Part shown: positions 7,350 through 60,063 of the stretch, one piece after another
Numbering within the stretch: position 1 is the stretch's first letter
Layout: every line of letters begins with the position of its first letter
Assembly (NCBI GenBank): GCA_027492485.1
Contig: JAPUER010000004.1
Span: 56,504-120,503 of the forward strand
Reading direction: 5' to 3'
Length of the DNA stretch: 64,000 bases
DNA from: Betaproteobacteria bacterium
GTDB lineage: Bacteria; Pseudomonadota; Gammaproteobacteria; Burkholderiales; Casimicrobiaceae
Position numbers and translations under genes: made by a program
Notes under the pieces: generated by a model
The model's input: the letters and a program-made list of their open reading frames with translations, nothing else
What the model was told of the DNA's origin: nothing
Database searches by the model: none

Positions 7350-7465
7350 ATCAGCTTGAGGCTGGATCGCCCATTCAGTATGGCCGAGGTGCACCATTTT
7401 TTACAAAGTCGACTTTCATAAAAAATAGCGTCTATGCCTTGTTTATAAAGGCTTCAAGCAAATAG
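7350..7465 (+). repeat. Palindromic element A (120-bp GTCGAC family)
   Basis: Member of the six-copy family. The left arm contains GCTTGAGGCT (7354-7363) and the right arm the complementary GGCTTCAAGC (7450-7459, one mismatch); the centre is AAAGTCGACTTT at 7405-7416. It shares CCATTCA, 34 bp before the centre, with copies B and C. Upstream of TonB receptor 1. Confidence 0.75.
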
Positions 7466-7704
7466 TTGTACGGGTTATCCACTGCCGGCAAGCGACGCCA
7501 ACGACAGGCCCCGTCTTTGCTCGGATGCAAATAAATGTCTTATATTTCAATAACTTACATGATTCATGACGATGTTGACGATAAAGAACCAAATAACTCG
7601 TCAACACAACGTGGCGGACCTCCCTGTAGATGAAATGACCGCTTGATGACAGAATCGAAAAGTCATTCTTCCAACCGCCCGCAATGGGGATTACAGAGGT
7701 ATTT

Positions 7705-10461
7705 ATGATCAAGAAGAAACAATTGGCGGTCGCTATCGCGGCAACCTTTGTGGCCACCGGGGTTGCTTACGCACAGCAACAGCCGCAGAAGGTCGAAAAA
7801 GTCGAGGTAACCGGTTCCAACATCAAGCGGACCGATGTAGAAACCGTTGCGCCGGTTGACGTCATCACCCGTGAGCAGATTGAAAAGTCCGGTCAGCCCA
7901 CCATCGCCGAAGTGCTGCGCAATGTGCCGGCCAACAGCGGTAACTCCTACAACGAAAGCTTCTCGAACAGCTTTGCACCGGGCGCCTCGGGCATCTCGCT
8001 GCGCGGTCTGGGCCAGAAAGCCACCCTGGTGCTCATCAACGGTCGTCGTACCGCCGGTTATGGCTTCGCGCAAAACCTGCAGGACACCTTCGTCGACCTG
8101 AACTCGATTCCGTCGGCCGCGGTTGAGCGTATCGAAGTGCTGAAAGACGGCGCCTCCGCCATCTACGGCTCCGACGCCATCGCCGGTGTGGTCAACGTGA
8201 TCCTGCGCAAGGATTACAAAGGCATCGAAATGTCGGCCGGTATGGGCACCGCAGCAGGCAAGAACGACTACCGCTTCAGCGCCACCGGCGGCTTCGGCGA
8301 TCTCGGCAAGGACAAGTATTCGGTCCTCGGCGTGTTCGACTACTACAAGCGCGACTTGGTACTGCTGAGCGACACCGATTTCGGCGCATCGCGCGACTGG
8401 CGCGGTCGTGCTGGCGGCGGTCGTAACTTCGACTCGCTGACCGGTCTCGGCACCTGGCAGCAATACACCAATGCAGGCGTTGCCCAGCAAAACTTCCGTG
8501 CGGTTGACAACTGCGCCGCTGCCGGCGGCACTGTCCTGACTGGCCCGCAAGCTGCTGCTGCCGGTCTGATCAACCTGTCGACCAACCAGACTGCAGCCAC
8601 GTTGGCCACGCTGCAGGCGCGCGCCGCGGCAACCAATACGTTCTGTACCTACAACTCGAACAACGCGATCACCGCGTTGCCGGGCACTGAGCGTTACGGC
8701 TTCCTGGGCCGTGGTACGGTTGAAATCTCCCCGAACCTGCAAGGCTACGCCGAGTTGGGTCTGTCGGAAGTCAAGAGCAACCAGATCTTTACGCAGCCGT
8801 TCTTCAACACGACTGGCCTGACGCAAACGTCGGTTGGCCTGCGTCCGTTCAGCTACACGGTCAACTTCGCGCCTGGCGTTGCCGGCAACCCGTTCAGCAC
8901 GCTCGCTCGCTTCGCTGGCTCGCTCAACGACATGGGCACCCGCGACACCTCGATCAAGTCCGACACCTATCGCGTGCTGGCTGGTTTGAAGTGGACGGCA
9001 GGCTCGTGGGACGGCGACAGCGCATTTGGCTGGTCGCGCAACGAAGTCACGTCGAGCAACTACAACCGCCTGAACATCGCGGGCGTCAGCGCTGCGTTCG
9101 GCATCACCTCGGCTGCCCAGCCGCCGGTGCCGACATCGAACAGCTCGACCTACAACCTCAACAACCAGTCGCTGAACAGCGCAACGGTGCGTGATTCGCT
9201 CCGCGCCAACTTCGACCGCAAGTCGAATTCCGAGCTGTTCTTCGTCGATACGCGTGCTTCTACCGAGTTCGCGCAACTGACGCTGCCTGGTGGTCCGGTC
9301 GGCTTGGCCGTTGGCGCCGAATACCGTAGCGAGAAGCTGAGCGACACGCCGGCCGCGGTTGCGCAGCAGGGCCTGATCCTCGGTCAAGGTATCACCAAGA
9401 CCAACGGTGACCGCAACAGCTTCGCTGTCTTCGCCGAAGCCAGCCTGCCGATCCTGAAGAACCTTGAAGGCCAGTTGGCCGTTCGTTCCGACCACTACAG
9501 CGACTACGGCAGCTCGACGGTGCCGAAGGTTGGCCTGAAGTGGAAAGTGTCGCCGGAGTTCGTGCTCCGCGCGAACTGGGGCGAAGGCTTCCGCGCGCCG
9601 ACGCTGCCGGAAATCTCGCCGTCGGTGGCTACCTTCTTCACCCAGGTGAACGATCCGGTGACTGGCGCTTCGGGCATCAACATTTCCGGCATTTACGCCG
9701 GCAACCCGAACCTGAAGGCTGAAACCTCGAAGAGCACGACCATCGGTGCGGTGTTCGAACCGACCCGCGACTTGAACATCGGCGTCAACTGGTATCAGAT
9801 CGATTGGAAAGATCAGGTCGGCTCTTACAGCTTCCAGACCCTGGTCAACAACAACGGCGTCATCAATGGCGTTCAGCAAGGTATCGTGACCCGCGATCCG
9901 GCGACCAATGCGATCGTGTCGGTGCAAACCAACTACACGAACCTTGGCCAGGTGAAGACCAGCGGTTTCGACTTCGACCTGAACTACCGTCTGAATACGC
10001 TGTACGGCAAGTTGGGTCTGCGTGCCGGTGGCTCCTATCTCGAGAAATACTCGATCGATGGCGACGAATACGTCGGTCAAAACGGCTACACCTCGCTGCC
10101 GCGTATCCGTGGTTTCGCGCAACTGTCGTGGGAGCAGGGCCCGTACTCTGCTGCTCTGACCGCGAACTACATCCACAGCTACTATCAGGCGCTGCTGGCG
10201 TCGACGTACTACGTCACGACCAACGATCCGAGCTTCCAGACCGGTACCTACGGCACGAAGATCGGCTCGCGCACGACGCTGGATCTGTTCGGTGCTTACG
10301 AGTTCAACAACAAGCTGAAGATCTCGGGCTCGGTGTTGAATCTCGCCAACAAGCAACCGCCGTATGATCCGGGCGTCTCGTCCACCTACCTGTACGACTT
10401 CACGCAGTACGACGTGCGTGGTCGCGCCTATCGCCTGAACCTGACCTACAAGTTCAAGTAA
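7705..10461 (+). CDS. TonB-dependent outer-membrane receptor 1
   Basis: Outer-membrane gated channel of 918 residues using the TonB-ExbBD complex, probably the one at 18432-21000. ATG 7705 is preferred to 7684 because it has AGAGG upstream and yields a clean signal peptide (MIKKKQLAVAIAATFVATGVAYA). The mature N-terminus QKVEKVEVTGSNIKR acts as the TonB-box region. The plug domain runs to about residue 170 with RIEVLKDGASAIYGSDAIAG, followed by a 22-strand barrel ending RLNLTYKFK. Receptors with this VTGSNIKR start are widespread in Massilia- and Xanthomonas-like bacteria. Its neighbour on the same strand is a secreted S9 peptidase, so peptides are the favoured substrate, as inference only. 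Confidence 0.92.
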   Translation: MIKKKQLAVAIAATFVATGVAYAQQQPQKVEKVEVTGSNIKRTDVETVAPVDVITREQIEKSGQPTIAEVLRNVPANSGNSYNESFSNSFAPGASGISLRGLGQKATLVLINGRRTAGYGFAQNLQDTFVDLNSIPSAAVERIEVLKDGASAIYGSDAIAGVVNVILRKDYKGIEMSAGMGTAAGKNDYRFSATGGFGDLGKDKYSVLGVFDYYKRDLVLLSDTDFGASRDWRGRAGGGRNFDSLTGLGTWQQYTNAGVAQQNFRAVDNCAAAGGTVLTGPQAAAAGLINLSTNQTAATLATLQARAAATNTFCTYNSNNAITALPGTERYGFLGRGTVEISPNLQGYAELGLSEVKSNQIFTQPFFNTTGLTQTSVGLRPFSYTVNFAPGVAGNPFSTLARFAGSLNDMGTRDTSIKSDTYRVLAGLKWTAGSWDGDSAFGWSRNEVTSSNYNRLNIAGVSAAFGITSAAQPPVPTSNSSTYNLNNQSLNSATVRDSLRANFDRKSNSELFFVDTRASTEFAQLTLPGGPVGLAVGAEYRSEKLSDTPAAVAQQGLILGQGITKTNGDRNSFAVFAEASLPILKNLEGQLAVRSDHYSDYGSSTVPKVGLKWKVSPEFVLRANWGEGFRAPTLPEISPSVATFFTQVNDPVTGASGINISGIYAGNPNLKAETSKSTTIGAVFEPTRDLNIGVNWYQIDWKDQVGSYSFQTLVNNNGVINGVQQGIVTRDPATNAIVSVQTNYTNLGQVKTSGFDFDLNYRLNTLYGKLGLRAGGSYLEKYSIDGDEYVGQNGYTSLPRIRGFAQLSWEQGPYSAALTANYIHSYYQALLASTYYVTTNDPSFQTGTYGTKIGSRTTLDLFGAYEFNNKLKISGSVLNLANKQPPYDPGVSSTYLYDFTQYDVRGRAYRLNLTYKFK

Positions 10462-10494
10462 CCGGCGTCTGCCTCCCTGTGGGGCAGCAGAAGG

Positions 10495-10522
10495 AAGGGG
10501 GGCTTCGGCCCCTTTTCTTTTT
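10495..10522 (+). terminator. Rho-independent terminator after TonB receptor 1
   Basis: A GC-rich stem with a TTCG tetraloop at 10504-10507 (GGGGGGC on the left, GCCCC on the right), followed by TTTTCTTTTTT. It lies about 35 bp after the receptor stop codon and separates it from the S9 peptidase gene. Confidence 0.85.
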
Positions 10523-10639
10523 TCGGTTCGGCATCGCTCTTGCGCCCGCCAGCCATCTGCGCCAGCGCAAGGCCACTATCCGGCGCCGCGTGGCATCATT
10601 GCATCTGTGCAAGCAAACTCATCCGTCAGGATCAGAGAC

Positions 10640-12634: not shown

Positions 12635-12684
12635 CACCGGCGCAAACGGACACCGATACGCCGGCGTGACGCCCGGCGAACAAG

Positions 12685-12711
12685 AAAAAGGAGGCCGCAG
12701 CCTCCTTTTTT
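12685..12711. terminator. Bidirectional terminator between the two S9 peptidase genes
   Basis: A perfect 11-bp stem (AAAAAGGAGGC 12685-12695, loop CGCA, complementary arm 12700-12710). It is A-rich on one side and T-rich on the other, so it can end transcription of both convergent genes. Confidence 0.92.
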
Positions 12712-12727
12712 GTCGCTTTCGCCTGGC

Positions 12728-14915: not shown

Positions 14916-14924
14916 GGGATTTTG

Positions 14925-15045
14925 ATCAGCTATTTACGGAAACGACCATTCAACAAGGGCAAACGGCCTATTTTGGCAAAAGTCGACTTTACTGCATATT
15001 GCGGCTTGAGCCCAATTGAAACAAAGAAAAGTCGAAAAAGCTGAT
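14925..15045 (+). repeat. Palindromic element B (120-bp GTCGAC family)
   Basis: The ends are ATCAGCT (14925-14931) and AGCTGAT (15039-15045), a perfect 7-bp inverted pair. The centre AAAGTCGACTTT (14979-14990) is at the exact middle. TGAGCCC lies 28 bp after the centre start, as in copies C and D. Upstream of TonB receptor 2. Confidence 0.85.
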
Positions 15046-15278: not shown

Positions 15279-18011
15279 ATGCAAATCAAACGGAAGCATC
15301 TCGCCATTGCGGTTATCAACGCAGTGGCTGTGATGGCGAGCGGCGCTGCTTACGCGCAGTCGACACCGCAAAAAGTCGAAAAGGTCGAAGTGACCGGTTC
15401 GAACATCAAACGTATCGAAGGCGAATCCGCCAATCCGGTGCAGGTGATTTCCCGTCAGGAGATCGAACGTGCTGGCGTATCCACAGTCAACGAGGTGCTG
15501 CAACGCATCACCGGCGCCGGTGCCGCGATCGATGACCGCATCACCAACGGCTTTGCGCCCGGCGGCGGCTCGCTGAACCTGCGCGGCCTCGGTTTCAACA
15601 GCACGCTGGTGCTGGTCAATGGCCGTCGTCTGCCGACCTATCCGTTTGCCCAGCAAGTCGGTACGCCGCAGGGCTTCAACGACATCAACAATATTCCGCT
15701 GGCGGCCGTCGAGCGCATCGAGGTGCTGAAAGACGGCGCCTCCGCTGTGTACGGCGCCGATGCCGTGGCCGGCGTGGTCAACGTGATCCTGCGCCAGGAC
15801 TACACGGGCCTCGAAGTGTCCGGCGGCTACGGCATTTCGTCGCGCAGCGACGGCCAGACGTTCAACGCCAGCCTCACGGCCGGTTTCGGTTCGCTGGCGA
15901 AAGACCGCTTCAATGTGCTGATCGGTGCCAATATTTCGACGCGCGACTCGATCGCGTCGCGTGATCGTCCGTGGTCGCGCACGGAAGACCTGCGCCTACT
16001 TGGCGGCGCCGATCGTCGTTCTGCTTACGGCTATCCGGGCACGATTATCGATACCGTTACCGGCGAGTCCTACTACAACGCTGGCGGCACCTGCGCACCG
16101 AGCACCGTGGTCGGTGGCGGCAACAGCATCCGCGGCGCGTTCTGCCGCTACGACCGTGCGCAGCTCGGCAACGTGCAGGGCGACTCCGACAAGATGGGCG
16201 TTTATGCACGCGGCAACTTCGCCGTCACGTCCGACATTACCGGCTTCGCCGAAGTGCTGTTCACGCGCAACAAGTTCAAAGGCCTTGGCTGGCCGGCAGG
16301 TACCACCGATGACGTCGGTATCGGCACCTACTTCATCCCCGGTGGGCAGCGCGGCAACCCGTTTGCGCACGACGCCGAGGTCTACTATCGCTTCGCCGAC
16401 GTTGGCAATCGCGGCGATGATGGTACGTCCGACACGTCGCGTCTGGTGCTTGGCTTCAAGGGCACGACCGCGGGCTGGGACTGGGAAGCGGCGGGCAACC
16501 TCAATCGCATCAAGATCGACACCTTCGCCACCAACAACGCGCTTAATTCGCGCGTCATGTGCCTGACCAACCCCGCAGCTGCCGCGGCTTACGCGGCCGG
16601 TGGCGATCCGCTCGGTCTGGGAACGCTGGCGCAGATCTTCGCCGCCAATCCGTCGTATGCCACGTACTTCCGCAACGAACTGGCCAAATGCCCGCAGGCG
16701 TTCGCCACTTACGGCTATTACAACTATGCCAACCCGGCCGCCAACAACGCCGGCGTAGCCGCCTATCTGCGTCATGATGCGCTACGTCAGGGTCGTTCCA
16801 ACCTCGACGGCTTCGATGTCAAGGCATCGCGTGAACTGTTCCAGTTGCCCGGCGGCGCCCTGGCACTTGCGGTCGGTTTCGAAACGCGCAAGGAAAAGGT
16901 CTCCGACGTTCCGGATATCCAGTTGCAGACGGGCGACACGCTTGCCATCAGCGCCGCGCAGGCGTTCGGCGAGCGCACTATCAGCGCCGGTTACGCCGAA
17001 CTGAACGCACCGCTGACCAAATCGCTGGAAGCAAACGTTGCGGTTCGCTACGACAAGTACAGCGGCAACGGCAGCTTCGCTGCCACGTCGCCGAAAGTCG
17101 GCCTGCGTTTCCAGCCGATGCAGCAGTTGCTGTTCCGTGCCACGGCGTCGAAGGCGTTCCGTGCACCATCGCTGTTTGAAACCAGCCCGGCACAACAAAC
17201 GTCATTCACCTTCGGTATTCAGGATCCGATCCGCTGCCCAACCTTCAACGAATCGAACCCCGATTGCGTGATCGACGTCCGTCGCGTGCAACAGGGTAAC
17301 CCGGATCTGAAGGCCGAAAAGTCCACGTCTTACACCCTGGGCGTCGTGCTTGAGCCGACTCGCGACATCAGCCTGTCGATCGATGGTTGGCTGATCGACC
17401 GCAAGGACGAAATCGGTTCGTTTGCGGACCAACTGCTGGTCAACCTGTTCCCGAACAACCCGGCCATCGTGGTGCGTGACAGTGCAGGTCGAATTCAGCA
17501 GATCAACCAGGTGCCGGTCCAACTCAACAAGACCAAGACGCACGGTGTCGATATCGAACTGGCGGTGCGCAACGACTTCGGCTCGATGGGCAAGCTGTCG
17601 TCGAAACTCGGTATCAGCTACGTCGGCACCTACAAGTTCTCGACGCTTGACGACGCGGGCCTGGCAACCGTGGCGGAGTACAACGGCACCTACAACTATC
17701 CGCGTTATCGCGGCACCTGGGACTTCGCGTGGTCGCGCGGCCCGTGGGAAGCGACCCTCGGCGGTTACGGCGTCGGCTCCTATCAGGGCCTTGGCCTGAA
17801 CGCGAAAGTCGGCGCCTTCCAAGTGTGGAACACCTCGATCAGCTACACCGGCATCAAGAATCTGAAACTCCGTCTTGGCGTCAATAACCTGTTCGACCGC
17901 GGTCCCTCGTACAACGACGAAACCAGCGGTGCCAACGCCGGCTACAACCCGCAATGGGGCGATCCGGTTGGTCGTTACTTCACGATCGCAGCCACTTACA
18001 AATTCAAGTAA
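15279..18011 (+). CDS. TonB-dependent outer-membrane receptor 2
   Basis: A 910-residue receptor paralogous to the one at 7705: same signal-peptide style (MQIKRKHLAIAVINAVAVMA, cleavage after GAAYA), same QKVEKVEVTGSNIKR N-terminus, plug motif RIEVLKDGASAVYGADAVAG and a barrel ending ATYKFK. It differs in the surface loops, which include paired Cys residues (for example GGTCAPST and GAFCRYD), so it probably takes a different ligand. It lies directly before the exbB-exbD-exbD-tonB operon, a likely energy source for both receptors. Peptide or peptide-bound substrate is inferred from the adjacent S9 peptidases. Confidence 0.92.
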   Translation: MQIKRKHLAIAVINAVAVMASGAAYAQSTPQKVEKVEVTGSNIKRIEGESANPVQVISRQEIERAGVSTVNEVLQRITGAGAAIDDRITNGFAPGGGSLNLRGLGFNSTLVLVNGRRLPTYPFAQQVGTPQGFNDINNIPLAAVERIEVLKDGASAVYGADAVAGVVNVILRQDYTGLEVSGGYGISSRSDGQTFNASLTAGFGSLAKDRFNVLIGANISTRDSIASRDRPWSRTEDLRLLGGADRRSAYGYPGTIIDTVTGESYYNAGGTCAPSTVVGGGNSIRGAFCRYDRAQLGNVQGDSDKMGVYARGNFAVTSDITGFAEVLFTRNKFKGLGWPAGTTDDVGIGTYFIPGGQRGNPFAHDAEVYYRFADVGNRGDDGTSDTSRLVLGFKGTTAGWDWEAAGNLNRIKIDTFATNNALNSRVMCLTNPAAAAAYAAGGDPLGLGTLAQIFAANPSYATYFRNELAKCPQAFATYGYYNYANPAANNAGVAAYLRHDALRQGRSNLDGFDVKASRELFQLPGGALALAVGFETRKEKVSDVPDIQLQTGDTLAISAAQAFGERTISAGYAELNAPLTKSLEANVAVRYDKYSGNGSFAATSPKVGLRFQPMQQLLFRATASKAFRAPSLFETSPAQQTSFTFGIQDPIRCPTFNESNPDCVIDVRRVQQGNPDLKAEKSTSYTLGVVLEPTRDISLSIDGWLIDRKDEIGSFADQLLVNLFPNNPAIVVRDSAGRIQQINQVPVQLNKTKTHGVDIELAVRNDFGSMGKLSSKLGISYVGTYKFSTLDDAGLATVAEYNGTYNYPRYRGTWDFAWSRGPWEATLGGYGVGSYQGLGLNAKVGAFQVWNTSISYTGIKNLKLRLGVNNLFDRGPSYNDETSGANAGYNPQWGDPVGRYFTIAATYKFK

Positions 18012-28178: not shown

Positions 28179-29321
28179 ATGGACCCACGGATCGAAGCTC
28201 GACTGAAACCGGGGACGGACTATCACCCGTTGCAGGCGATTGCGTTCTTCCGGCGCTGGCCGCCGTCGACGCTGCGCAATCTGCTGTTCACGGCGATCAT
28301 GTGCGGCATCGTGGTCGTGGTGATGCTGCTGTTCGCGCTCGGCATGGGGCACCGCATCACCTGGCAGATGCTGGCCGAAGTGGCCACCATCAGCGTGCTG
28401 ATCGGCTACACCCAGCATTTCCTCTACAAGCTCGCCATTACGCTGGCCCGCCGCCGCCAGCGTCTGGCGCCGATCCTGATGCATCCGCTGGCGCTGGGCG
28501 TGCTGTTGCCAGTGGTGGCTATCTACATCGGCTACGTGCTGGCGGTGTCGCTGATGACCGGCACCCTGTGGCTCAACGTCAGCGAGAACTGGCGCGGCTT
28601 CGTGTTCGCGTCCTGCGTCACCATTGCCATCGGCTGGCTGCTGTGGGAATCCATCGAGGCGAGCCGTCGCCGCGAAATCGAGCGCCGCGAACGCGCCGAG
28701 CTGGCCGCCGCGATCGAACACGCCGAGCGCGAACGGGCCACCGCCGAGCTGAAGACACTGCGCGCGCAGGTCGAGCCGCATTTCCTCTACAACACGCTGT
28801 CCAACGTGGTGAGCCTGATCGAGCACGAGCCGGCCACCGCGAAACACATGACCGAGCGGCTGATCGGCTATCTGCGCCACACGCTCGATGCCTCGCGGCG
28901 CGAGCATGCCACCGTCGGCGACGAGCTGGCGATCATCGCCGACTACCTCGAAATCCTGCGTCTGCGCATGGGCGAACGCCTCTGGTACGAGATCGCCGCC
29001 GACGCCGCCACCCGCGCGCTGCCGCTGGCGCCGATGCTGCTGCAACCGCTGGTGGAGAACGCCGTCAAGCACGGCCTGGAGCCCAAGATCGAGGGCGGCC
29101 GCGTCACGGTCAGCGCGGCGGTGCAGGCCGGCATGCTCAACATCGCCGTCGAAGACAGCGGCCTTGGCTTTGGCGTGGCGAGCGATACCGCCGGCGCCGG
29201 CAGCGGGCTTGCCAACGTGCGCGCGCGGCTGCAGGCGATCTACGGCGACGCCGCGCAACTGACCATCGAACAACCGGCGGAGGGCACGCGAATCCGGCTT
29301 GCGCTGCCGGTTGCCATTTAA
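28179..29321 (+). CDS. LytS/AlgZ-type sensor histidine kinase
   Basis: A 380-residue inner-membrane kinase. Four hydrophobic segments occupy residues 30-170 without a recognisable periplasmic sensor domain. A short coiled-coil linker (RRREIERRERAELAAAIEHA) leads to the His_kinase domain with the phospho-acceptor in QVEPHFLYNTLSNVV (His201) and an HATPase_c domain with LVENAVKHGL and DSGLGFGV. This pairing with a LytTR regulator is typical. Its stop codon TAA forms the first bases of palindromic element C, which fills the gap to the response regulator. Confidence 0.92.
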   Translation: MDPRIEARLKPGTDYHPLQAIAFFRRWPPSTLRNLLFTAIMCGIVVVVMLLFALGMGHRITWQMLAEVATISVLIGYTQHFLYKLAITLARRRQRLAPILMHPLALGVLLPVVAIYIGYVLAVSLMTGTLWLNVSENWRGFVFASCVTIAIGWLLWESIEASRRREIERRERAELAAAIEHAERERATAELKTLRAQVEPHFLYNTLSNVVSLIEHEPATAKHMTERLIGYLRHTLDASRREHATVGDELAIIADYLEILRLRMGERLWYEIAADAATRALPLAPMLLQPLVENAVKHGLEPKIEGGRVTVSAAVQAGMLNIAVEDSGLGFGVASDTAGAGSGLANVRARLQAIYGDAAQLTIEQPAEGTRIRLALPVAI

Positions 29322-29440
29322 CAACTTTGCCGTGAAATGCCCATTGACTATGGGCAAAAACCGGAATATGTCATAAAGTCGACTTCAAGGTAAATTGCCC
29401 GCTGAGCCCAATGCAATAGCCGCTTTCAACAAAAAGCCAT
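29319..29440 (+). repeat. Palindromic element C (120-bp GTCGAC family)
   Basis: Occupies nearly the whole gap between kinase and regulator, starting at the kinase stop codon and ending 16 bp before the regulator ATG. Centre AAAGTCGACTTC at 29375-29386, GGGCAA (29353-29358) facing TTGCCC (29395-29400), TGAGCCC 28 bp after the centre start, and a 3' hairpin GCTTT-CAACAA-AAAGC at 29422-29437. Confidence 0.85.
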
Positions 29441-29456
29441 ATTCGAGGATTGCCTC

Positions 29457-30263
29457 ATGGCGCAAGCCACCGCCCTCATCGCCGAAGACGAAGCCAACCT
29501 CGCGCGTGCGCTGCGCGATGCGTTGGCGCGCGCCTGGCCCGAGCTGCGCATCGTCGACAGCGTCGGCAACGGACCGGCCGCGATCCACGCCGTCGACCAG
29601 CACGCGCCCGACGTCGTCTTTCTCGATATCCGCATGCCCGGCCTGACCGGTCTGCAGGTCGCCGAGCGCCTCGCCAGCGCCCCCGGCGCCCGCGGCCCGC
29701 TGGTGGTCTTCGTCACCGCGTACAACGAATACGCCGTGCAGGCCTTCGAGCGCGAAGCGGTGGACTATCTGGTCAAACCGGTGATCGACGCCCGTCTCGC
29801 CGAAACCGTCGAGCGCCTGAAAAAACGGCTGGTCAGCGCTGCCGCCGAGGCGCCGGGCAGCGGCGGCCACGACGAACTCAGCCGCGCGCTGCATCTGATC
29901 AAACGCCTCGCCGACGGCGCTGCGGCGGCGCCCGCGCCGTACCTGCGGTTTCTGCGCGCGGGCCTGGGCGACACCGTGCGCATCGTGCCGGTCGACGAGG
30001 TCATTTATCTGCAGGCGCAGGACAAATACGTTTCGCTCTACACCCGCGACGGCGAGCACCTGATCCGCATCTCGCTGAAGGAACTTGCCGACCAGCTCGA
30101 CCCGACGCTGTTCGTGCAGGTGCACCGCTCGACCATCGTCAACATGCGCGCCGTGGCGGTCGCCGACCGCGACTTTACCGGCCGCGTGCTGTTGACGTTA
30201 AACGGCGTGAACGACAAAGTGCAGGTGTCGCGGCAGTATGCCCACCTGTTTGCGCGGATGTGA
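29457..30263 (+). CDS. LytTR-family response regulator
   Basis: A 268-residue DNA-binding regulator. Receiver domain (about 5-120) with acidic residues Glu10/Asp11, phospho-acceptor Asp57 in VVFLDIRMPG, and a Lys in YLVKPVI. The LytTR domain (about 165-268) has EVIYLQAQDKYVSLYTRDGE and VQVHRSTIVNMRAV. It should act with the kinase at 28179. GAGG at 29445 precedes the ATG. The palindromic element between the two genes could affect its translation or expression. Confidence 0.93.
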   Translation: MAQATALIAEDEANLARALRDALARAWPELRIVDSVGNGPAAIHAVDQHAPDVVFLDIRMPGLTGLQVAERLASAPGARGPLVVFVTAYNEYAVQAFEREAVDYLVKPVIDARLAETVERLKKRLVSAAAEAPGSGGHDELSRALHLIKRLADGAAAAPAPYLRFLRAGLGDTVRIVPVDEVIYLQAQDKYVSLYTRDGEHLIRISLKELADQLDPTLFVQVHRSTIVNMRAVAVADRDFTGRVLLTLNGVNDKVQVSRQYAHLFARM

Positions 30264-32949: not shown

Positions 32950-34269
<1,320 letters not shown>

Positions 34270-34715
34270 CAGGTAGGTCTCCTTTGCGGCAGGCTGTTCC
34301 CTGCCCGCTATCGTTGTGGCCAAGCTGCGGCCGCTTTGTCTGCCGACGTGAACGCTATACGCGGCGGCGCCGGCAACGGTTTCGGTCAGCGGCGGCATCG
34401 TGCCCATATCGTTGCAGCACTGTCGCTGCCGCCGCGACAGACCTTACATCGTCCGCCGCGCCGGTTGCGGCATCGGCTGCACCGTGGCTTGCGCGTAACA
34501 GCTTTTTGCCTAAAGCGTTATTGCAAAAGCGTTAAAAAGATAAAAACGCAAAAGTCAACAATTGCCAAAATATCGTACTGTGCCGCAGTCAGCCGCCGCG
34601 TAATCGACAAAGCTGCTGTCTTAGTCAATTTTTTTTCGAGCGATCCTATTTACAACTGACCGCCAGTCATTTACAGTCCGCATCCAACTGACTCGTGGTC
34701 ATTTAACGGATTTTC
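34270..34715. other. Divergent intergenic region egtB / tetR
   Basis: 446 bp with no convincing gene. The egtB-proximal 230 bp are GC-rich. Palindromic element E fills 34498-34619, oriented toward egtB. The remaining 95 bp before the TetR start are AT-rich, with an ACTGACCGCCAGTCATT stretch near 34656 that could be an operator, as GACTG/CAGTC-type half-sites recur at 34685; this is speculative. Confidence 0.4.
34498..34619 (-). repeat. Palindromic element E (120-bp GTCGAC family, divergent)
   Basis: Arms CAGCTTT (34499-34505) and AAAGCTG (34609-34615), or ACAGC with GCTGT at the extreme ends. The centre is degenerate (GTCAAC, 34554-34559). On the minus strand it reads TTTTGGCAA-TTGTTGACTTTT near the centre and ends with a GCTTT-AAAGC hairpin (34502-34515) like copies C and D. 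Upstream of egtB. Confidence 0.7.
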
Positions 34716-43736: not shown

Positions 43737-44624
43737 CTAGCGCCAGAAACGCGGCGGGTCCGGCACGTAGCCCAGGTTGTCCGGGAACGGGTTGGGCGTG
43801 CGCTGCCACGGGCGCGGCGACTGGATCACGCCCATCGACACCAGATTTTCGTAGCTGTCGTAACGGATGCGGATGGTTTCGTTCGGCGACGATTGCGCCC
43901 GCTCGAACGACGTGTGCGACACCTGCGACCACTCGCGCTCGCCGTGACCGGTGCCCAGCTTTTCACGCACCGCGTCGGCACGGCCGTCGTAGCGCGGTTC
44001 GGCGCGTTTGGCCATTTCGGCGGGCGCGGCGCTGGCGGCCGGCGCTGCCGGCACCGGCTGTGCGGTATTGGCGGCGGAATCGGTGGCGCGCCCGGCGCTG
44101 CCCATCTCGGCTTCCGACTTGCGGCCTCCGACCGACCACGGCGGTGCCGGCGTCACCGAAATCGGCGGCTGGTACGCGCGCTCCTTGAACAGCGCGACGC
44201 CGATCACGCCGACGTTGGCCGGGCGACCGGTGCGCTCGGCGTAGGACGCGGGCGAGGCGACGAATTCGAACGCGGCGACTTCGTTGTTGCTCTTGCGCCA
44301 GCCAGTCACTTCATAGCGTTGATAACCGTTGAACACGTAGCCGGACTGGTCGATGCTGGCGGTCTGCCCGTTGAGCACATTGACGCCGTCGACCGACATC
44401 ACGGCGAGCACGCGGCCGCCGGACGCATTGGCGACCGACACCGAGTACTTGGCGCCCGGTGTGCCGGCGACCCAGTATTCGCCGCGGTAGTAGTGCACCG
44501 GCAAAGTCTGTCCGCTGCTGCGGTCGACGACGGTGACGTCGGCCAGGCGGCCGATGGCCCCGGCGTTCATCGATGCGGCTGCCGTGGCGGCGACGACAGC
44601 GGTGAACAGTGCTTTTTGCAACAT
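43737..44624 (-). CDS. Secreted hypothetical protein linked to the ECF sigma locus
   Basis: A 295-residue exported protein with a signal peptide (MLQKALFTAVVAATAAASMN, cleavage near AGAIG) and GGAG upstream of ATG 44624. Residues 30-150 form a beta-rich domain with PVHYYRGEYWVAGTPGAKYS and YEVTGWRKSNNEVAAFEFVA. An Ala-rich linker follows, then a polar C-terminus with RIRYDSYENLVSMGVI and a final proline-rich segment. No enzyme motif is recognised. It is probably a cell-envelope partner or target of the ECF system, inferred from position. Confidence 0.65.
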   Translation of the reverse strand: MLQKALFTAVVAATAAASMNAGAIGRLADVTVVDRSSGQTLPVHYYRGEYWVAGTPGAKYSVSVANASGGRVLAVMSVDGVNVLNGQTASIDQSGYVFNGYQRYEVTGWRKSNNEVAAFEFVASPASYAERTGRPANVGVIGVALFKERAYQPPISVTPAPPWSVGGRKSEAEMGSAGRATDSAANTAQPVPAAPAASAAPAEMAKRAEPRYDGRADAVREKLGTGHGEREWSQVSHTSFERAQSSPNETIRIRYDSYENLVSMGVIQSPRPWQRTPNPFPDNLGYVPDPPRFWR

Positions 44625-44726
44625 GGCGGGCTCCTTCAGCTTGCCTGTCCGTGCCCCGACGTGGGGTGGTGCAGACTGAAACGAGCCGGCGCGGAAAACG
44701 GGGTTAAACCCGCGTGCGGAGGGCAT

Positions 44727-44842
44727 AGCTTTTTTGCAAAAGCGTTAACAGATAAGGCCTGCAGCGCCGATTTACGCGAAAGTCGACAATAAAAAAAAAC
44801 AGCCTGAATGCCCCATTCGTACGCGCAGAAACCGAAAAAGCT
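44727..44842 (-). repeat. Palindromic element F (120-bp GTCGAC family, divergent)
   Basis: Arms AGCTTTTT (44727-44734) and AAAAAGCT (44835-44842), perfect over 8 bp. GTCGAC (44782-44787) is at the exact centre. Read on the minus strand it shares ATTGTCGACTTT and TTAACGCTTTTGCAA with copy E. It lies about 100 bp upstream of the secreted-protein gene. Confidence 0.75.
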
Positions 44843-44857
44843 GTAAGGCCGCTGTGC

Positions 44858-45460
44858 TTAGCGATGGGCGGCGACGGGCGAGGCTTCGCTGGGCTGGCCC
44901 AGGGTGATGATGGTGGTGGGCACACCGGTGGGCAGGCCGGCAGTGTCGTTGAGCATCTCGCGCAGCGTGGCGCCGTCGATCAACTGCAGGTTACGGCCAC
45001 TGGCGAAGGCCAGCGTCTCGCGGGTGAACTGCCCGGTCGTCACCACAAAGCCGCCCGCGGCATGGCGGGCGCGCACCTGGTTGTGCAGCTCGCGCGCCGT
45101 GTTCACCTCGACCGACGGCGAACGCCATTCCAGGCAATGCACCAGGAAATACTCGCCCGATTTGCGCAGCACCATGTTGCTGGCGCCGTCCGGCGCGCGC
45201 TTGCCCTCGCTGCCGACCAGATAGCCGCGATGGCGAAAGGCCTGGCTGACCAGCAGTTCGAATTGCGGCCAGGTCAGGCGATTGAGCGGCACCAGCATCG
45301 GATTGGGCGACATTTGCGCGGCGCGCTGCAACTGGCGCCGCCGCTGTAGCGTGTTGATCAGCAGCAAAATGGCGATCAACAGCAGCAGACCGACGATAGC
45401 CAGCATCCAGAGATCGACGCTGGCGAACATTCCGGCGGCAGTTGGCTGGGGCTGGTTCAT
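44858..45460 (-). CDS. Mrr-like restriction-endonuclease fold protein, membrane-anchored, probably inactive
   Basis: A 200-residue protein with an N-terminal membrane helix (about 18-37) and a basic stretch (RRRQLQR), followed by an Mrr_cat-type domain (about 58-170). The fold is shown by FELLVSQAFRHRGYLV and GGFVVTTGQFTRETLAFA and LQLIDGATL. The active site is altered: the usual DGGVDLVL reads DGASNMVL (Asn95 for Asp) and the usual QCK reads HCL (His108, Leu110). Nuclease activity is therefore unlikely. It may bind DNA or act as a scaffold at the membrane. Active members of this group cleave modified DNA. Confidence 0.8.
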   Translation of the reverse strand: MNQPQPTAAGMFASVDLWMLAIVGLLLLIAILLLINTLQRRRQLQRAAQMSPNPMLVPLNRLTWPQFELLVSQAFRHRGYLVGSEGKRAPDGASNMVLRKSGEYFLVHCLEWRSPSVEVNTARELHNQVRARHAAGGFVVTTGQFTRETLAFASGRNLQLIDGATLREMLNDTAGLPTGVPTTIITLGQPSEASPVAAHR

Positions 45461-52856: not shown

Positions 52857-53032
52857 ACCTTCTCCTGGGGGCGGCTACACTGAGGCGCCTGTTGTATGTT
52901 GATGTTAAGCAAGCATTATAGAAAGCCGGCCAGCGCCGTGCAGCGTGTAGTCATGCGCGTTTGGAGCGGCCGTCGCAGAGCGTGCACTCTAATTCACGGG
53001 TTTCTTTGCTTGTCCAACTAAGATCGCCGACT

Positions 53033-55401: not shown

Positions 55402-55421
55402 GCTCCCTGCAGGCGAGACGC

Positions 55422-55772: not shown

Positions 55773-56587
55773 CGACCGCTCCAGACCGGCATCGGTCGCT
55801 TGCCGATGAAGGCATCGATGCCCGCCTGCGCGTCTACCGACTGCATGTCGTGCGCCATGTTGCCGGATGCCAGTTGATACGCCGCAACCAGCGGTGCGCC
55901 GCGCGATTGCCGCAGTTGCCGCAGCAGTTTCTTGCCGGAAACCAGCGCCTGCGGCGATTTCGACGCCAGCAGCCCGGCCATGCCATGTACTTCTTCCATC
56001 AGGCAATTATCGTCGACGCAGCGGTTGATCAGCCCCCATGCGGCGGCCTGCGCCGCGTCGACGAATTCGCCGGTCAGCAGCATTTCGGCGGCATGTTTGG
56101 GCGCCATGCTTTGGGTCAGCGCGACGGCCGGCGTCGAACAGAACAATCCGAGGTTGATGCCGCTGGTGGCGAAGCGGGCGGAGCGCCCCGCGATTGCCAG
56201 GTCGCAGCTGGCGACCAACTGGCAGCCTGCGGCCGTGGCGATGCCGTGCACCGCCGCGATGACCGGCTGCGGCAGTTCCGCGATGGTGAGCATCAGCCGC
56301 GAGCAGCGATCGAACAACCCGGCCTGCCAGCTTTCCGCCGGATTGGCGCGCATTTCGCGCAGATCGTGCCCGGCGCAAAAGGCCTTGCCGCTGGCAGCGA
56401 GCACCAGCACTGCGCAGTCGGGATCGGCCGCTGCCATTTCGATGGCTTCCTGCAACGCGGCAATCATGGCTGAAGAGAGCGCGTTGTACAGCGCCGGCCG
56501 GTTGAGCGTCAGCGTGGTGACGCCATCTCGGCTCGCCCGCCGAACGAGGGCATCTTCTACACTTGCAGATTCGTCTACTTTCTTCAT
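55769..56587 (-). CDS. Enoyl-CoA hydratase/isomerase family protein
   Basis: A 272-residue crotonase-fold protein. Oxyanion-hole motifs are AASGKAFCAGHDLREMRA (about 65-82) and VHGIATAAGCQLVASCDLAI (about 112-131), then ARFATSGINLGLFCSTPAVAL. The catalytic Glu pair of true hydratases (E144/E164) is not evident: the expected positions hold Gly/Leu, as in ECHDC3-like proteins. Hydratase activity is therefore uncertain. Divergent from the adenosyltransferase gene by 24 bp. Confidence 0.85.
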   Translation of the reverse strand: MKKVDESASVEDALVRRASRDGVTTLTLNRPALYNALSSAMIAALQEAIEMAAADPDCAVLVLAASGKAFCAGHDLREMRANPAESWQAGLFDRCSRLMLTIAELPQPVIAAVHGIATAAGCQLVASCDLAIAGRSARFATSGINLGLFCSTPAVALTQSMAPKHAAEMLLTGEFVDAAQAAAWGLINRCVDDNCLMEEVHGMAGLLASKSPQALVSGKKLLRQLRQSRGAPLVAAYQLASGNMAHDMQSVDAQAGIDAFIGKRPMPVWSGR

Positions 56588-56611
56588 TGGCGCGCCAGCA
56601 GCAGTTCAGCC

Positions 56612-57172
56612 ATGGGCCATCGACTTTCCAAGATTACAACGAAAACCGGTGACAGTGGTACGACCGGTCTCGGCGATGGTTCGCGCGTCCCGAAAACACA
56701 TCCGCGGATTGCTGCGATCGGCGAAGTCGACGAACTGAACAGTGTCGTCGGACTGTTGTTGACGGAAGCGCTACCGGATGATCTGCGCGAATCGCTGGTC
56801 GCCGTGCAGCACGATCTGTTCGACCTCGGCGGCGAGCTCTCCATTCCGGGCTACATCGCGATCGCCGAGGCGCATGTCGCGCGGCTGGAGGCGCTGTCGG
56901 GCGCGCTAAACGTGGAGCTGCCGATGCTCAAGGATTTCATTCTGCCCGGCGGCTCCCGCGCAGCAGCGTATGCCCATCTGGTGCGCACCGTTTGCCGCCG
57001 CGCGGAGCGCGCCGTGCTGCTGCTGGCAGCACACGAGGCGGTCTCCGATTTCGCCCGCATCTATCTCAATCGTCTCAGCGATCTGGCCTTCGTGCTGGCG
57101 CGCGTGCTCAACCGCGCCGCCGGGCAGCCCGATGTGCTCTGGCGCAAGGACCGTCAGACGGCGGCGACGTAG
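56612..57172 (+). CDS. ATP:cob(I)alamin adenosyltransferase (PduO type)
   Basis: A 186-residue enzyme making adenosylcobalamin. ATP-binding motif TKTGDSGTTGLGDGSRVPK (about 9-27), GEVDELNSVVGLLL (about 38-51), PGGSRAAAYAHLVRTVCRRAER (about 111-132) and the C-terminal YLNRLSDLAFVLARVLNR. PduO/MMAB family. Divergent from the enoyl-CoA hydratase gene; a role in a methylmalonyl-CoA or other B12 pathway is inferred. Confidence 0.93.
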   Translation: MGHRLSKITTKTGDSGTTGLGDGSRVPKTHPRIAAIGEVDELNSVVGLLLTEALPDDLRESLVAVQHDLFDLGGELSIPGYIAIAEAHVARLEALSGALNVELPMLKDFILPGGSRAAAYAHLVRTVCRRAERAVLLLAAHEAVSDFARIYLNRLSDLAFVLARVLNRAAGQPDVLWRKDRQTAAT

Positions 57173-57298
57173 CTGGCGTGGCAAGAAAAACGACATCGCC
57201 TGCATCGTCAAATGCCGGTTTCTGCGATCCGGTCACCCACCGGCGACGCGGCTCCAGCGAATCCGGCGTCTATCCGGCGCCATCACCGAAAGTAACTT

Positions 57299-59356
57299 AT
57301 GCAAAACCCGCTGCTTGACACATGGAACGCGCCCTACGGCCTGCCGCCGTTTGCTGAAACCCGCCCCGAGCATTTCGCTCCGGCCTTTGCGGCAGCGTTT
57401 GCCGAGCACCGCGCCGAACTGGACGCGATTGCCGGCAACCCGGAACCCGCAACGTTCGCCAATACCATCGCCGCGTTCGACCGCGCCGGCTGGAAAGTTG
57501 CCCGCTTCGGCGAAATGTTCTGGAACCTCGGCGCGGCCCACACCAACGCGGCGCTGGAAGCGGCGGAGCGCGAGCTGGTGCCGAAAATCGCGATGCACCA
57601 GAGCGCGGTCTACATGCATGAGGCACTGTTCGCCCGCATCGATGCGGTCGTCAACTCCGCCGAAATGAAATCGTTGGCGGCCGAAGACCGCCGCCTTGCG
57701 GAGCGTATTCATCTCGACTTTGTGCGTCAGGGCGCACGCATCGCGGCCGGCCAGCGCGAGCGCTACGCGGCGATTGTCGGGCAGCTTGCGTCGCTCTGCA
57801 CGCAGTTCTCGCAGAACGTGCTCAAGGACGAGACCGAATGGGTGCTCTGGCTCGACGACGAATCGTCGCGCGCCGGCTTGCCCGCCGACGTGCTCAACGC
57901 GGCGCGCGCTGCGGCGGCAGAGCGCGGACGCGACGACGGCCATGCCATTACCCTGTCGCGCAGCTCGGTCGTGCCCTTCCTGACCTTTTCGACGCGACGC
58001 GATTTGCGCAAACAGGCGTTCGACGCCTGGGTGTCGCGCGGTGCGCATGCCGGCCCGAGCGACAACCGCCAGATCATCGTCGACATCCTGAAACTGCGCC
58101 AGGAGCAGGCCGAGCTGCATGGCTACAAGACCTTCGCCGACTTCCAGCTGGTCGACCGTATGGCGAAGACACCCGCCGCCGCGCGTGCGCTGATGCTGCA
58201 GGCCTGGGAGCCGGCCAAGGCGACGCTGAAGCGCGAGGCCGCGCTGTTGAACGCGAGCCGTATCGCGCACGGGCAGACCGACCCGCTTGCGCCGTGGGAC
58301 TGGCGCTTCTACGAGGAGAAGGTGCGGCAATCGCATTTCCTGCTTGACGACGCGGTGGTGAAGCCGTACTTCGAACTCGATCGCATGATTGCCGCGATGT
58401 TCGGCGTGGCCGGGCGGCTGTTCGGCCTGAGCTTCAAGGAAGTGACGCAGGCGGCCGGCGTCAAGCTCTACCACCCCGACGTGCGCCTGTTCGAGGTGCA
58501 TCGCGAGGGCAAGCTGAAGGCGCTGTTCATCTCCGACAATTTCGCGCGATCATCGAAGCGCGGCGGCGCCTGGATGTCGAGCTATCGCGTGCAGGGCAAG
58601 AACAGCGTGCACGGCGAGGTGATTCCGATCGTCGGCAATCACAACAACTTCGCCAAAGCGCCCGCGGGGCAGCCCACCCTGATTTCGTTCGACGACGTGC
58701 GCACGCTGTTCCACGAGTTCGGCCACGGCCTGCACGGCATGCTCTCCGACGTGCGCTACGAACGGCTCGCGGGCACCAATGTGTATCAGGACTATGTCGA
58801 GCTGCCGTCGCAATTGCTGGAGCACTGGGCGACGACCCCCGAAGTGCTCACCGAGCACGCGCGGCACTACCAGACCGGCGAGCCGATCCCGGACGCGCTG
58901 GTCGAGCGCATCCAGGCGGCGGCGCGCTTCGGCAGCGGCTTCGAGAACGTGCAGTACATCGCCTCAACGCTGACCGATCTGGCGCTGCATTCGCGCAGCA
59001 ATTTCGACGGGCTCGACGCCATGGCCTTCGAGCAGGAGGAGTTGGGCCGCATCGGTTTGCCGCCGGAAGCGCACCCGATGCATCGCTTCACCGGCTTCCG
59101 TCACCTGTTCTCCGACAGTTCGTACGCTGCCGGGTACTACGTCTACATGTGGGCGGCCGTGCTCGACAACGATGCCTTCGAGGCTTTCGAGGAGGCCGGC
59201 AACGCCTTCGACCCGGCGACCGCGAAGCGGCTGCACCAGTACATCTATTCCGCCGGCAGCGCTATCGAATCGGCGGACGCCTATCGCGCATTCCGCGGAC
59301 GCGATGCCAGGGTGGAAGCGATGCTGCGCAAGCGCGGGTTGGTGGAGACGGCGTAA
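57299..59356 (+). CDS. prlC: M3-family oligopeptidase (oligopeptidase A-like)
   Basis: A 685-residue cytoplasmic zinc metallopeptidase that degrades oligopeptides of up to about 20 residues. Zinc site HEFGHGLHG with His472, Glu473 and His476, third ligand Glu in VELPSQLLEHW. The N-terminus (NPLLDTWNAPYGLPPFAETR) is typical of OpdA/PrlC. It could finish degradation of peptides imported by the ABC system, though nothing but function links them. Confidence 0.93.
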   Translation: MQNPLLDTWNAPYGLPPFAETRPEHFAPAFAAAFAEHRAELDAIAGNPEPATFANTIAAFDRAGWKVARFGEMFWNLGAAHTNAALEAAERELVPKIAMHQSAVYMHEALFARIDAVVNSAEMKSLAAEDRRLAERIHLDFVRQGARIAAGQRERYAAIVGQLASLCTQFSQNVLKDETEWVLWLDDESSRAGLPADVLNAARAAAAERGRDDGHAITLSRSSVVPFLTFSTRRDLRKQAFDAWVSRGAHAGPSDNRQIIVDILKLRQEQAELHGYKTFADFQLVDRMAKTPAAARALMLQAWEPAKATLKREAALLNASRIAHGQTDPLAPWDWRFYEEKVRQSHFLLDDAVVKPYFELDRMIAAMFGVAGRLFGLSFKEVTQAAGVKLYHPDVRLFEVHREGKLKALFISDNFARSSKRGGAWMSSYRVQGKNSVHGEVIPIVGNHNNFAKAPAGQPTLISFDDVRTLFHEFGHGLHGMLSDVRYERLAGTNVYQDYVELPSQLLEHWATTPEVLTEHARHYQTGEPIPDALVERIQAAARFGSGFENVQYIASTLTDLALHSRSNFDGLDAMAFEQEELGRIGLPPEAHPMHRFTGFRHLFSDSSYAAGYYVYMWAAVLDNDAFEAFEEAGNAFDPATAKRLHQYIYSAGSAIESADAYRAFRGRDARVEAMLRKRGLVETA

Positions 59357-59381
59357 GACGATCACGCGGCGCCGCGCTTAG

Positions 59382-59417
59382 TCCCCTCTCCCAGCGGGAG
59401 AGGGTTAGGGTGAGGGC
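59382..59417 (+). repeat. Extragenic palindrome, CCCTCTCCC-type
   Basis: A perfect 9-bp stem (CCCTCTCCC 59384-59392, loop AGC, GGGAGAGGG 59396-59404) followed by TTAGGGTGAGGG. This is a dispersed repeat type known from many proteobacterial genomes. It lies between the convergent prlC and gloA genes, where it may also act as a bidirectional transcript end. Confidence 0.8.
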
Positions 59418-59505
59418 AGGTGGAGCGCGGAGCATTGCGTGCCAAGGTTCGCGACCCAAAATGCCTCGATTCCGCTGCGCTGCATCGCGCCTACCTGGTC
59501 GCGCG

Positions 59506-59895
59506 CTACCCCTGCTTTGCCTCGATCAATTCAATCTTGTAGCCATCCGGATCCTGCACGAAGGCGATGACGGTGCTGCCGCCTTTGACCGGGCCGGCTT
59601 CGCGGGTGACCTTGCCGCCGGCGGCGCGCACGGCCTCGCATGCGGCGGCGGTGCTGGGCACGGCGATGGCGATGTGGCCGAAGGCGGTGCCGATTTCGTA
59701 CTCTGCGACGCCGTAGTTGTAGGTCAGTTCAAGCACGGCGCCGTCGCGCTCGTCGCCGTAGCCGACGAAGGCGAGTGAATACTGCTGCTCCGGCCGGTCG
59801 GTGGTGCGCAGCAATTGCATGCCCATCACGCGGGTGTAGAAGTCGATCGAGCGTTGCAGATCGCCAACGCGGAGCATGGTGTGGAGGATGCGCAT
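59506..59895 (-). CDS. gloA: Lactoylglutathione lyase (glyoxalase I)
   Basis: A 129-residue metalloenzyme converting the methylglyoxal-glutathione hemithioacetal to S-lactoylglutathione. The four metal ligands match E. coli GloA in number: His5, Glu56, His74 and Glu122. Length and pattern ([36 protein letters not shown]-like [21 protein letters not shown]) indicate the nickel-activated class. Palindromic element D lies 49 bp upstream. Confidence 0.95.
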
Positions 59896-59943
59896 GGCGG
59901 GTTCCTGTCTGCCTGTCTGTTTTCAGGTGGTTGAATGAGGGTT

Positions 59944-60063
59944 ATGGCTTTTTGTTGAAAGCCTTATTGCATAAGGGCTCAACAAGCAATTCTGCCAAAT
60001 ATCGACTTTTCATCATTTATGGCTGTGAGCCCAATGTGAATAAGGGTTGCATTGAAAAGCCAT
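59944..60063 (-). repeat. Palindromic element D (120-bp GTCGAC family)
   Basis: The cleanest copy: ends ATGGCTTTT (59944-59952) and AAAAGCCAT (60055-60063), a perfect 9-bp inverted pair; AATATCGACTTT (59998-60009) at the exact middle; GGGCTCA (59975-59981) facing TGAGCCC (60026-60032). On the minus strand a hairpin GGCTTT-CAACAA-AAAGCC (59963-59946) closes the 3' end. It overlaps the last base of the YdiJ-type stop codon and leads into gloA. Confidence 0.9.

What the first reader, a model, noticed from the sequence alone, without database searches (positions are those of the whole stretch)
7350..60063. Six copies of a ~120-bp palindromic intergenic element centred on GTCGAC, all oriented the same way to the downstream gene
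Copies at 7350-7465, 14925-15045, 29319-29440, 34498-34619 (minus), 44727-44842 (minus) and 59944-60063 (minus). Each is an imperfect palindrome whose middle is GTCGAC or a close variant, usually AAAGTCGACTTT. In B, D and F the central palindrome lies within a base of the exact geometric centre. Internal landmarks keep fixed spacing: GGGC 22-23 bp before the centre start, TGAGCCC 28 bp after it (B, C, D), GCTTT hairpin start 47 bp after it (C, D). The ends are complementary but differ between copies (ATCAGCT/AGCTGAT, ATGGCTTTT/AAAAGCCAT, AGCTTTTT/AAAAAGCT, CAGCTTT/AAAGCTG), which is covariation. Read in one sense, all six precede the next gene in its own direction (two TonB receptors, a LytTR regulator, egtB, a secreted protein, gloA). 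I do not recognise the family; ERIC is similar only in size and symmetry.
Basis: partly seen in the sequence, partly recalled or inferred. Interest (0 to 1): 0.88.

Follow-up and report, generated by a model that had tools for sequence, protein, structure and literature searches.

The report
Regularly spaced conserved DNA palindrome family
In one genus of bacteria, a 120-base mirror-symmetric DNA element sits between genes about every 11,000 bases and keeps its landmarks and length at the same places in different species, which suggests that it helps to organise the chromosome rather than being leftover mobile DNA.

Summary
The six copies are real: part of a family of roughly 375 per genome, extrapolated from 74 places in an 815-kb sample. 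No Rfam match; in the order, matches occur in 1 of 158 genera sampled.

Next-gene sense is 42 of 76 in the sample. Covariation is near expectation in 119 copies, though a mild excess shows in 26.

Instead:
(1) A dyad-symmetric ~120-bp site (~83 bits). None of 162 hits in three genomes lies inside a called gene.
(2) 31 of 32 testable places are shared with a sister species. Landmark columns are 90% identical, spacers 37% (29% between unrelated copies); length differs by 0-2 bp in 23 of 23 pairs. No sampled pair within a genome exceeds 68.3%. Selection on individual copies fits best.
(3) Spacing is even: mean 11-12 kb, CV 0.48-0.63 against ~0.9 at random, in three genomes that share sites.
(4) In another species the ends and centre persist but the inner palindrome differs.

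Best reading: a DNA-level nucleoprotein site organising the chromosome at the ~10-kb scale. The binding protein is unknown.

The parts
7350..7469 (+). copy A, upstream of a TonB receptor (ORF 7684-10461); centre GTCGAC at 7408-7413
   Evidence: (59.9 bits); copy at the orthologous place in G005
14925..15045 (+). copy B, upstream of a TonB receptor (ORF 15279-18011); centre GTCGAC at 14982-14987
   Evidence: (74.9 bits); copies at the orthologous place in G005 (87-bp match) and G013
29320..29440 (+). copy C, between a histidine kinase (ORF 28179-29321) and a LytTR response regulator (ORF 29457-30263); centre GTCGAC at 29378-29383
   Evidence: (78.3 bits); Pfam; copies at the same place in G005, G013, G015, G006 and (other inner palindrome) G012
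34498..34617 (-). copy D, upstream of an egtB-like ORF (32950-34407); centre GTTGAC (element sense) at 34554-34559
   Evidence: (52.5 bits); same place in G005 and G012
44725..44845 (-). copy E, between an Mrr-like ORF (44858-45460) and ORF 43737-44726; centre GTCGAC at 44782-44787
   Evidence: (66 bits); same place in G005, G015 and G001, and in G013 by one flank only; none detected in the G012 gap
59944..60064 (-). copy F, between the stop codon of an FAD-oxidase ORF (60063-63089) and a glyoxalase ORF (59506-59895); centre GTCGAT (element sense) at 60001-60006
   Evidence: (76.8 bits); same place in G005 and (other inner palindrome) G012

Best explanation
The element is a DNA-level, dyad-symmetric nucleoprotein site of about 120 bp. 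It has a central palindrome (AAAGTC|GACTTT), A-tracts about 13 bp out, a second palindrome centred about 34 bp out on each side (GCCCATT..GGGC in this species) and outer CAGCTTTT boxes 52-59 bp out. Copies occur about every 11 kb, between genes, and individual copies appear to be kept by purifying selection. SHOWN here, by computation on samples: symmetry, fixed length, sharing of places between species with landmark-only conservation, intergenic placement, and spacing more even than random. INFERRED: selection on single copies as the cause; one or more sequence-specific proteins that assemble on the site, perhaps bending or wrapping the DNA; and division of the chromosome into ~10-kb units, with the sites as topological or architectural boundaries or anchors. 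In the G012 lineage the inner palindrome differs across the family while ends and centre are kept, as expected if one partner protein changed specificity. My confidence is about 0.85 that copies are constrained DNA-level sites and 0.5 for the chromosome-organising role.
For: Locus-level constraint. With both flanks located in a G005 gap of at most 1500 bp, 34 hits (32 places) were testable and 31 places hold a copy. In 27 full-length orthologous pairs, 23 landmark columns are 90.0% identical (89.3% for non-orthologous pairs) and 35 spacer columns 36.7% (29.1%). Element length differs by 0-2 bp in 23 of 23 pairs, against a median of 11 bp (0 to 1261) for the rest of the gap. No close copies were sampled: maximum pairwise identity 68.3% among 64 G000 copies and 66.4% among 55 G005 copies.

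DNA rather than RNA. The logo is dyad-symmetric, covariation is near expectation in the larger sets, two column pairs are almost always AA or TT with no clear link between the halves, and copies occur in tandem, divergent and convergent gaps (35/22/19).

Chromosome scale. Interval CV is 0.60, 0.63 and 0.48 in G000, G005 and G012 against null means of 0.86-0.93 (p at most 0.002 under each null). Intervals under 3 kb number 3, 2 and 1 against about 13-15, 11-12 and 4-5 expected (p 0.000 for the first two, 0.014-0.029 for G012). 0 of 162 hits lie inside a called gene. E. coli topological domains are of order 10 kb and the nature of their barriers is debated (PMC10642903, passages).

Module difference in G012. 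A/T phasing with a 9.6-bp component in both lineages, p 0.03 and 0.006.
Against: No binding protein was identified. The three genomes share element positions, so their spacing results are not independent. The phasing test is marginal, and an 8.2-bp component is almost as strong in G000+G005. A-tract dinucleotides are mostly kept between orthologs rather than exchanged (35 same, 5 switched, 14 other). One orthologous pair is 85% identical throughout, unlike the rest (48-69%). Five of the 16 other genus members (G002, G010, G011, G014, G016) have no match at 1e-6, and five more have only 3-12, so the motif in this form is dispensable or has diverged beyond the model. A covariation excess remains in one test. 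Even spacing alone could come from target immunity of an old mobile element. Three of nine converse G012 comparisons found no copy.
Confidence: 0.5

Rival explanations
1. Fossil non-autonomous mobile element (MITE or REPIN kind): an old burst of a palindromic element spread by a transposase, with spacing set by target immunity and insertions in genes purged.
For: Dispersed, AT-rich, palindromic, intergenic, genus-restricted and high-copy. Even spacing could be immunity. A Y1-transposase family is present in G000 (3 matches).
Against: 31 of 32 testable places are shared with G005. At the one absent place the G005 gap is 191 bp shorter than in G000, more than one element, so it looks like a larger deletion. 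No close copies among those sampled. Landmarks persist while spacers are near random, which the decay of a fossil does not give. The three Y1 loci have no copy within the flanks held (about 1.5 kb, less at one contig end). The junctions of the three G005 copies not found in G000 were not examined.
Confidence: 0.15
2. RNA-level element: a transcribed hairpin acting in mRNA stability, processing or termination, as proposed for ERIC in Yersinia.
For: Some copies fold better than shuffles (z down to -4.06 for F), copies often lie near stop codons (median 37 bp, against 122 bp to start codons), and A2 shows a small covariation excess above shuffles and most slid registers.
Against: Copy D folds no better than shuffles on either strand. 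Dyad and inner-palindrome covariation is near expectation in the larger sets, G-T cells are not in excess over A-C (624 and 602 against 642 and 634 expected), and 22 of 76 copies lie in divergent gaps.
Confidence: 0.12
3. Strong DNA gyrase sites, placed to load gyrase about every 11 kb.
For: Size and symmetry resemble the 130-bp E. coli gyrase motif, and some BIME-2 palindromes are gyrase sites (PMC6379681, passages). The spacing matches supercoiling domains.
Against: The E. coli motif is degenerate with wings phased at 10.75 bp. Here several landmarks are base-specific and amplitude at 10.75 bp is low beside other periods.
Confidence: 0.1
4. Operators of a global transcription regulator acting on neighbouring genes.
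For: It looks like a palindromic protein site between transcription units; copy C lies between a histidine kinase and a response regulator.
Against: Even spacing, 19 of 76 copies in convergent gaps, and no common gene class among the six window neighbours.
Confidence: 0.13

Closest known systems
ERIC / IRU / RU-1 (enterobacteria)
   Same: About 127 bp, palindromic, intergenic, dispersed (PMC2229807, passages; palindromy of ERIC recalled)
   Different: No sequence match, no sense rule, no uniform TA termini, nearly all tested places shared between species with landmark-only conservation, even spacing. Whether ERIC shows the last two was not tested
REP / BIME / REPIN with RAYT
   Same: Many intergenic palindromic copies, halves in inverted order; some BIME-2 are gyrase sites
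   Different: REPIN populations are modelled around a master sequence with near copies and a diverse spacer in the middle (PMC8049555, passages); here no sampled pair exceeds 68.3%, the centre is among the best conserved parts, and no copy lies beside the Y1-transposase loci
E. coli DNA gyrase motif (Topo-Seq)
   Same: Symmetric, 120-130 bp, alternating A/T and G/C
   Different: Base-specific landmarks; strongest phasing 9.6 bp, not 10.75 bp
Short chromosome-organising sites such as matS, SlmA or Noc sites and parS (recalled, not fetched)
   Same: Dispersed palindromic protein sites kept by selection
   Different: As recalled, those are short (about 13-17 bp) and regionally biased; this is a 120-bp multi-module site, evenly spaced and intergenic

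Membership tests
ERIC | ERIC consensus sequence | tested here: not met
ERIC | ~127-bp palindrome between genes | tested here: met
Bacterial MITE (including ERIC) | TA at the termini and target-site duplication | tested here: inconclusive
   Termini are mixed. Only one place absent in G005 was inspected, and it looks like a larger deletion; three places absent in G000 were not inspected
REPIN-RAYT | Population of near copies around a master sequence | tested here: not met
   maximum identity 68.3% among 64 and 66.4% among 55 sampled full copies
REPIN-RAYT | Copies flanking a RAYT (Y1 transposase) gene | tested here: not met
   three PF01797 loci in G000, no match in the 1.9-3.4-kb loci
Structured RNA element | Compensatory base-pair changes | tested here: inconclusive
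   near expectation in 119 copies (238 halves) and 26 G012 copies, with a few pairs above; mild excess in 26 copies
Rfam families | Match to a described family | tested here: not met
   window, gathering: 0; 6 loci: two weak microRNA matches in L009, neither over the element
DNA gyrase motif | 10.75-bp GC phasing in the wings | tested here: not met
   wing maxima at 7.5 bp (G000+G005) and 9.6 bp (G012); 10.7 bp is a lesser peak in both
DNA gyrase motif | Gyrase binding or cleavage | not testable with these tools
   Needs Topo-Seq or in vitro cleavage
Topological domain boundary | Even spacing at about 10 kb | tested here: met
   in three genomes with shared sites
Topological domain boundary | Blocks supercoil diffusion | not testable with these tools
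   Needs experiment

The most novel reading that the evidence does not exclude
A sequence-encoded grid of chromosome-domain boundaries: hundreds of selected 120-bp nucleoprotein sites, evenly spaced at the supercoiling-domain scale, whose inner recognition module is replaced family-wide in step with a changing DNA-binding partner. It would be a hard-wired form of the ~10-kb domains whose barriers are still debated in E. coli.
Probability: 0.4. Interest if true: 0.95.

Novelty: new variant of a known kind. Interest (0 to 1): 0.82.

Why it matters
Dispersed intergenic palindromes are usually read as mobile debris. Here the sampled copies look individually selected and are evenly spaced. The nature of bacterial ~10-kb topological barriers is described as debated (PMC10642903, passages). 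A genus with defined sequence sites at that spacing would let candidate boundaries be deleted, added and moved one by one, and the module difference in G012 offers a natural experiment for finding the binding protein.

Tried and rejected
Sense-oriented leader or attenuator: rejected (42 of 76). RNA hairpin family: weakened, not excluded. RAYT-mobilised REPIN: no link found. Half elements as the basic unit: rejected where checked. Nine partial hits (seven places) had a located G005 gap, and all seven places hold a 94-119-bp copy there, two of them in gaps over 2 kb. Concerted evolution by recent gene conversion: no close pairs among sampled copies. Gyrase motif: phasing does not fit.

A search for a diverged version in G002, G007 and G011 with a profile iterated on its own hits gave 35 hits, with 0 in the reversed control. 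Of these, 26 of 35 are intergenic (19 of 26, 3 of 5, 4 of 4). Such a profile can drift, so it is a lead only.

Limits. Gene calls come from a simple script, not a standard gene finder. The organism could not be named beyond its likely order. Copy number is extrapolated, because one search scored only 150 of 931 candidates.

Literature: no description of such a family turned up under the terms (searches returned no papers); only the held open-access library was searched. Searches looked for gyrase motifs and topological domains. Papers seen as passages only: PMC6379681, PMC12393610, PMC2229807, PMC8049555, PMC10642903. PMC2817692 was seen only in a search listing.

Rows dropped before counts: alignment A2 left out one copy with an insertion (26 of the 27). 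One search used 27 of 36 shared hits (partial copies dropped). One search used 119 of 136 hits (partial copies dropped). One search compared lengths in 23 of 32 shared hits.
Full report
CHECK OF THE OBSERVATION. The six copies exist where stated. Blastn with copy B alone finds 24 other places in the genome at E<0.01. A profile from the six copies plus 21 hits in 20 fetched loci scores the six at 52.9-85.4 bits, and a sequence-only model from 26 of these at 52.5-78.3 bits, in both cases by construction. In 815,265 bases of the same genome (window, contigs C79, C58 and C83, and the first 80 kb of C75) there are 76 hits at E<0.01, 64 of them full length, and 0 in the reversed sequence. Two copies split by another repeat give two hits each, so these are 74 places: about one per 11 kb, or some 375 in the 4.12-Mb genome. 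The whole-genome search met its cap (150 scored of 931 candidates on both strands), so the total is an extrapolation.

WHAT FAILS. In the window all six copies precede the next gene in the assigned sense. In the sample the downstream gene is in that sense in 42 of 76, and copies lie in tandem (35), divergent (22) and convergent (19) gaps. The sense is barely defined: 25 of 64 full copies score within 5 bits on both strands. Covariation is weak. In 119 full copies the dyad cells pair 3612 times of 7059 against 3534.1 expected from independent columns, none of the 40 strongest mutual-information pairs is a dyad pair, and partners slid by -1 give a higher combined score (3.25) than the true register (2.32). 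Inside each half, the inner palindrome shows no clear covariation in 238 halves, and only isolated pairs in 52 halves of G012. Against this, the first 26 copies do show an excess: further pair types 104 against 92.1 (1 of 500 shuffles), cells changed on both sides 128 against 110.8 (10 of 500), and the true register above the slid ones on nearly every measure. A relic of a palindromic ancestor or a weak structural constraint is not excluded.

ANATOMY. The logo of 119 copies from G000 and G005 is symmetric about a dyad and carries about 83 bits. Counting outward from the dyad: GTC|GAC (84-97% per base); positions 4-5 and 13-14 almost only A or T; GGGC at 26-29; CATT at 36-39 with C/G-rich bases beyond; AA at 44-45; CTTTT at 52-56; CAG at 57-59. 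The A/T pairs are mostly AA or TT, with no clear link between the two halves. Spacing is rigid: CTTT-N104-AAAG occurs 37 times in G000 against a mean of 3.4 at other spacings, with 14, 22 and 11 at 102, 103 and 105. A/T phasing has its strongest component at 9.6 bp in both lineages (block-shuffle p 0.03 and 0.006), but in G000+G005 an 8.2-bp component is almost equal, so this is only suggestive.

CONSERVATION AT EACH PLACE. G005 is a single-contig genome of the same genus with flanks mostly 75-93% identical. Of 38 G000 hits with both flanks found in the 700 kb fetched, 36 have a copy in the same gap. With gaps of at most 1500 bp there are 34 hits in 32 places, of which 31 are shared; one unshared hit, C58:8077, is half of a split copy whose other half is shared, and the one place without a copy differs by more than an element's length. 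Conversely 30 of 33 testable G005 copies are shared. All six window copies are shared with G005; C is also found in G013, G015, G006 and G012, and E in G015, G001 and (one flank only) G013. In 27 full-length pairs (identity 48-85%), 23 landmark columns are 90.0% identical (non-orthologous pairs 89.3%), while 35 spacer columns are 36.7% (29.1%). Element length differs by at most 2 bp in 23 of 23 pairs, whereas the rest of the gap differs by a median of 11 bp. No two sampled full copies within a genome are closer than 68.3% (G000) or 66.4% (G005). A fossil repeat would lose landmarks as fast as spacers, and recent copying or conversion would leave close pairs. Selection on single copies explains both.

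SPACING. Intervals average 11.1, 11.6 and 12.0 kb in G000, G005 and G012. Their coefficients of variation (0.60, 0.63, 0.48) are below those of random intergenic placement (null means 0.86-0.93) under every null tried (p at most 0.002). Intervals under 3 kb number 3, 2 and 1 against about 13-15, 11-12 and 4-5 expected (for G012, p 0.014-0.029). Because G005 and in part G012 share places with G000, these are not three independent tests. No hit of 162 lies inside a called gene; in G000 13 of 76 overlap a called gene end by 1-58 bp. Gaps with a copy are less often tandem (79/39/39 tandem/divergent/convergent against 525/165/103 without).

MODULE DIFFERENCE. G012, about 75-80% identical in the larger shared blocks, has 26 copies in 300 kb with the same ends and centre. 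Its consensus inner palindrome, centred 34 bp from the dyad, is AACGACCG..CGGTCGTT instead of GCCCATT..GGGC. Four of four G012 copies with both flanks located in the G000 sample sit where G000 has a copy (three of three for G005). In the converse direction 6 of 9 comparisons are shared. So the module appears to have changed in place across the family in one of the lineages; which state is older was not determined.

RANGE. With the G000 model, 12 of 30 genomes including the host match at 1e-6, all in the same genus; seven of the twelve have 96 or more listed matches (a capped list), the others 3-12, and 5 of the 16 other genus members have none. Of 399 genomes of the order, 4 match, all in this genus, 1 of 158 genera (stricter filters). 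16S of G005 is 91% identical to the best records of the plasmid collection, Cupriavidus, which suggests Burkholderiales. Two of three loci found by pattern are from MAG SZAS-69, which appears to be G013: a contig of 27,556 bases in both, and a hit at 16013-16132 in both.

INTERPRETATION. The safest statement is that this is a selected, DNA-level, dyad-symmetric site, most likely recognised by protein. The even spacing at the ~10-kb scale and the placement between genes point to chromosome organisation; E. coli domains are of that size and their barriers are debated (PMC10642903, passages). The closest physical analogue, the gyrase motif (130 bp, symmetric, 10.75-bp phasing; PMC6379681, passages), does not fit the phasing. 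ERIC and REPIN share size or abundance but fail defining tests. The protein, the wrapping and the boundary function are inferred, not shown.

Noticed in passing
G000 C58:8015-8376 (L078) and C79:196068-196379 (L069): Another repeat (CCCTCCCCGCTCGCCGGGGAGGG type) is inserted at about the GTCGAC centre of two copies; G005 has unsplit copies at both places, so the centre may be a preferred insertion target.
   Followed up: partly
G000 C79:84379-84436 (L064): A half copy is followed by a TGTCATCCTGAGC..GAAGGATC-like sequence; several partial copies break near the centre.
   Followed up: partly
L143-L144, L192-L199 (G002), L145 (G007), L146-L147 (G011): Possible strongly diverged versions (GCCCCAATT-type inner palindromes, changed ends and centre) in genomes with few or no matches to the model; 26 of 35 self-trained hits are intergenic.
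   Followed up: partly
window 28179-30263: Copy C separates a histidine kinase from a LytTR response regulator, and a copy lies between the same pair of genes in several species.
   Followed up: partly
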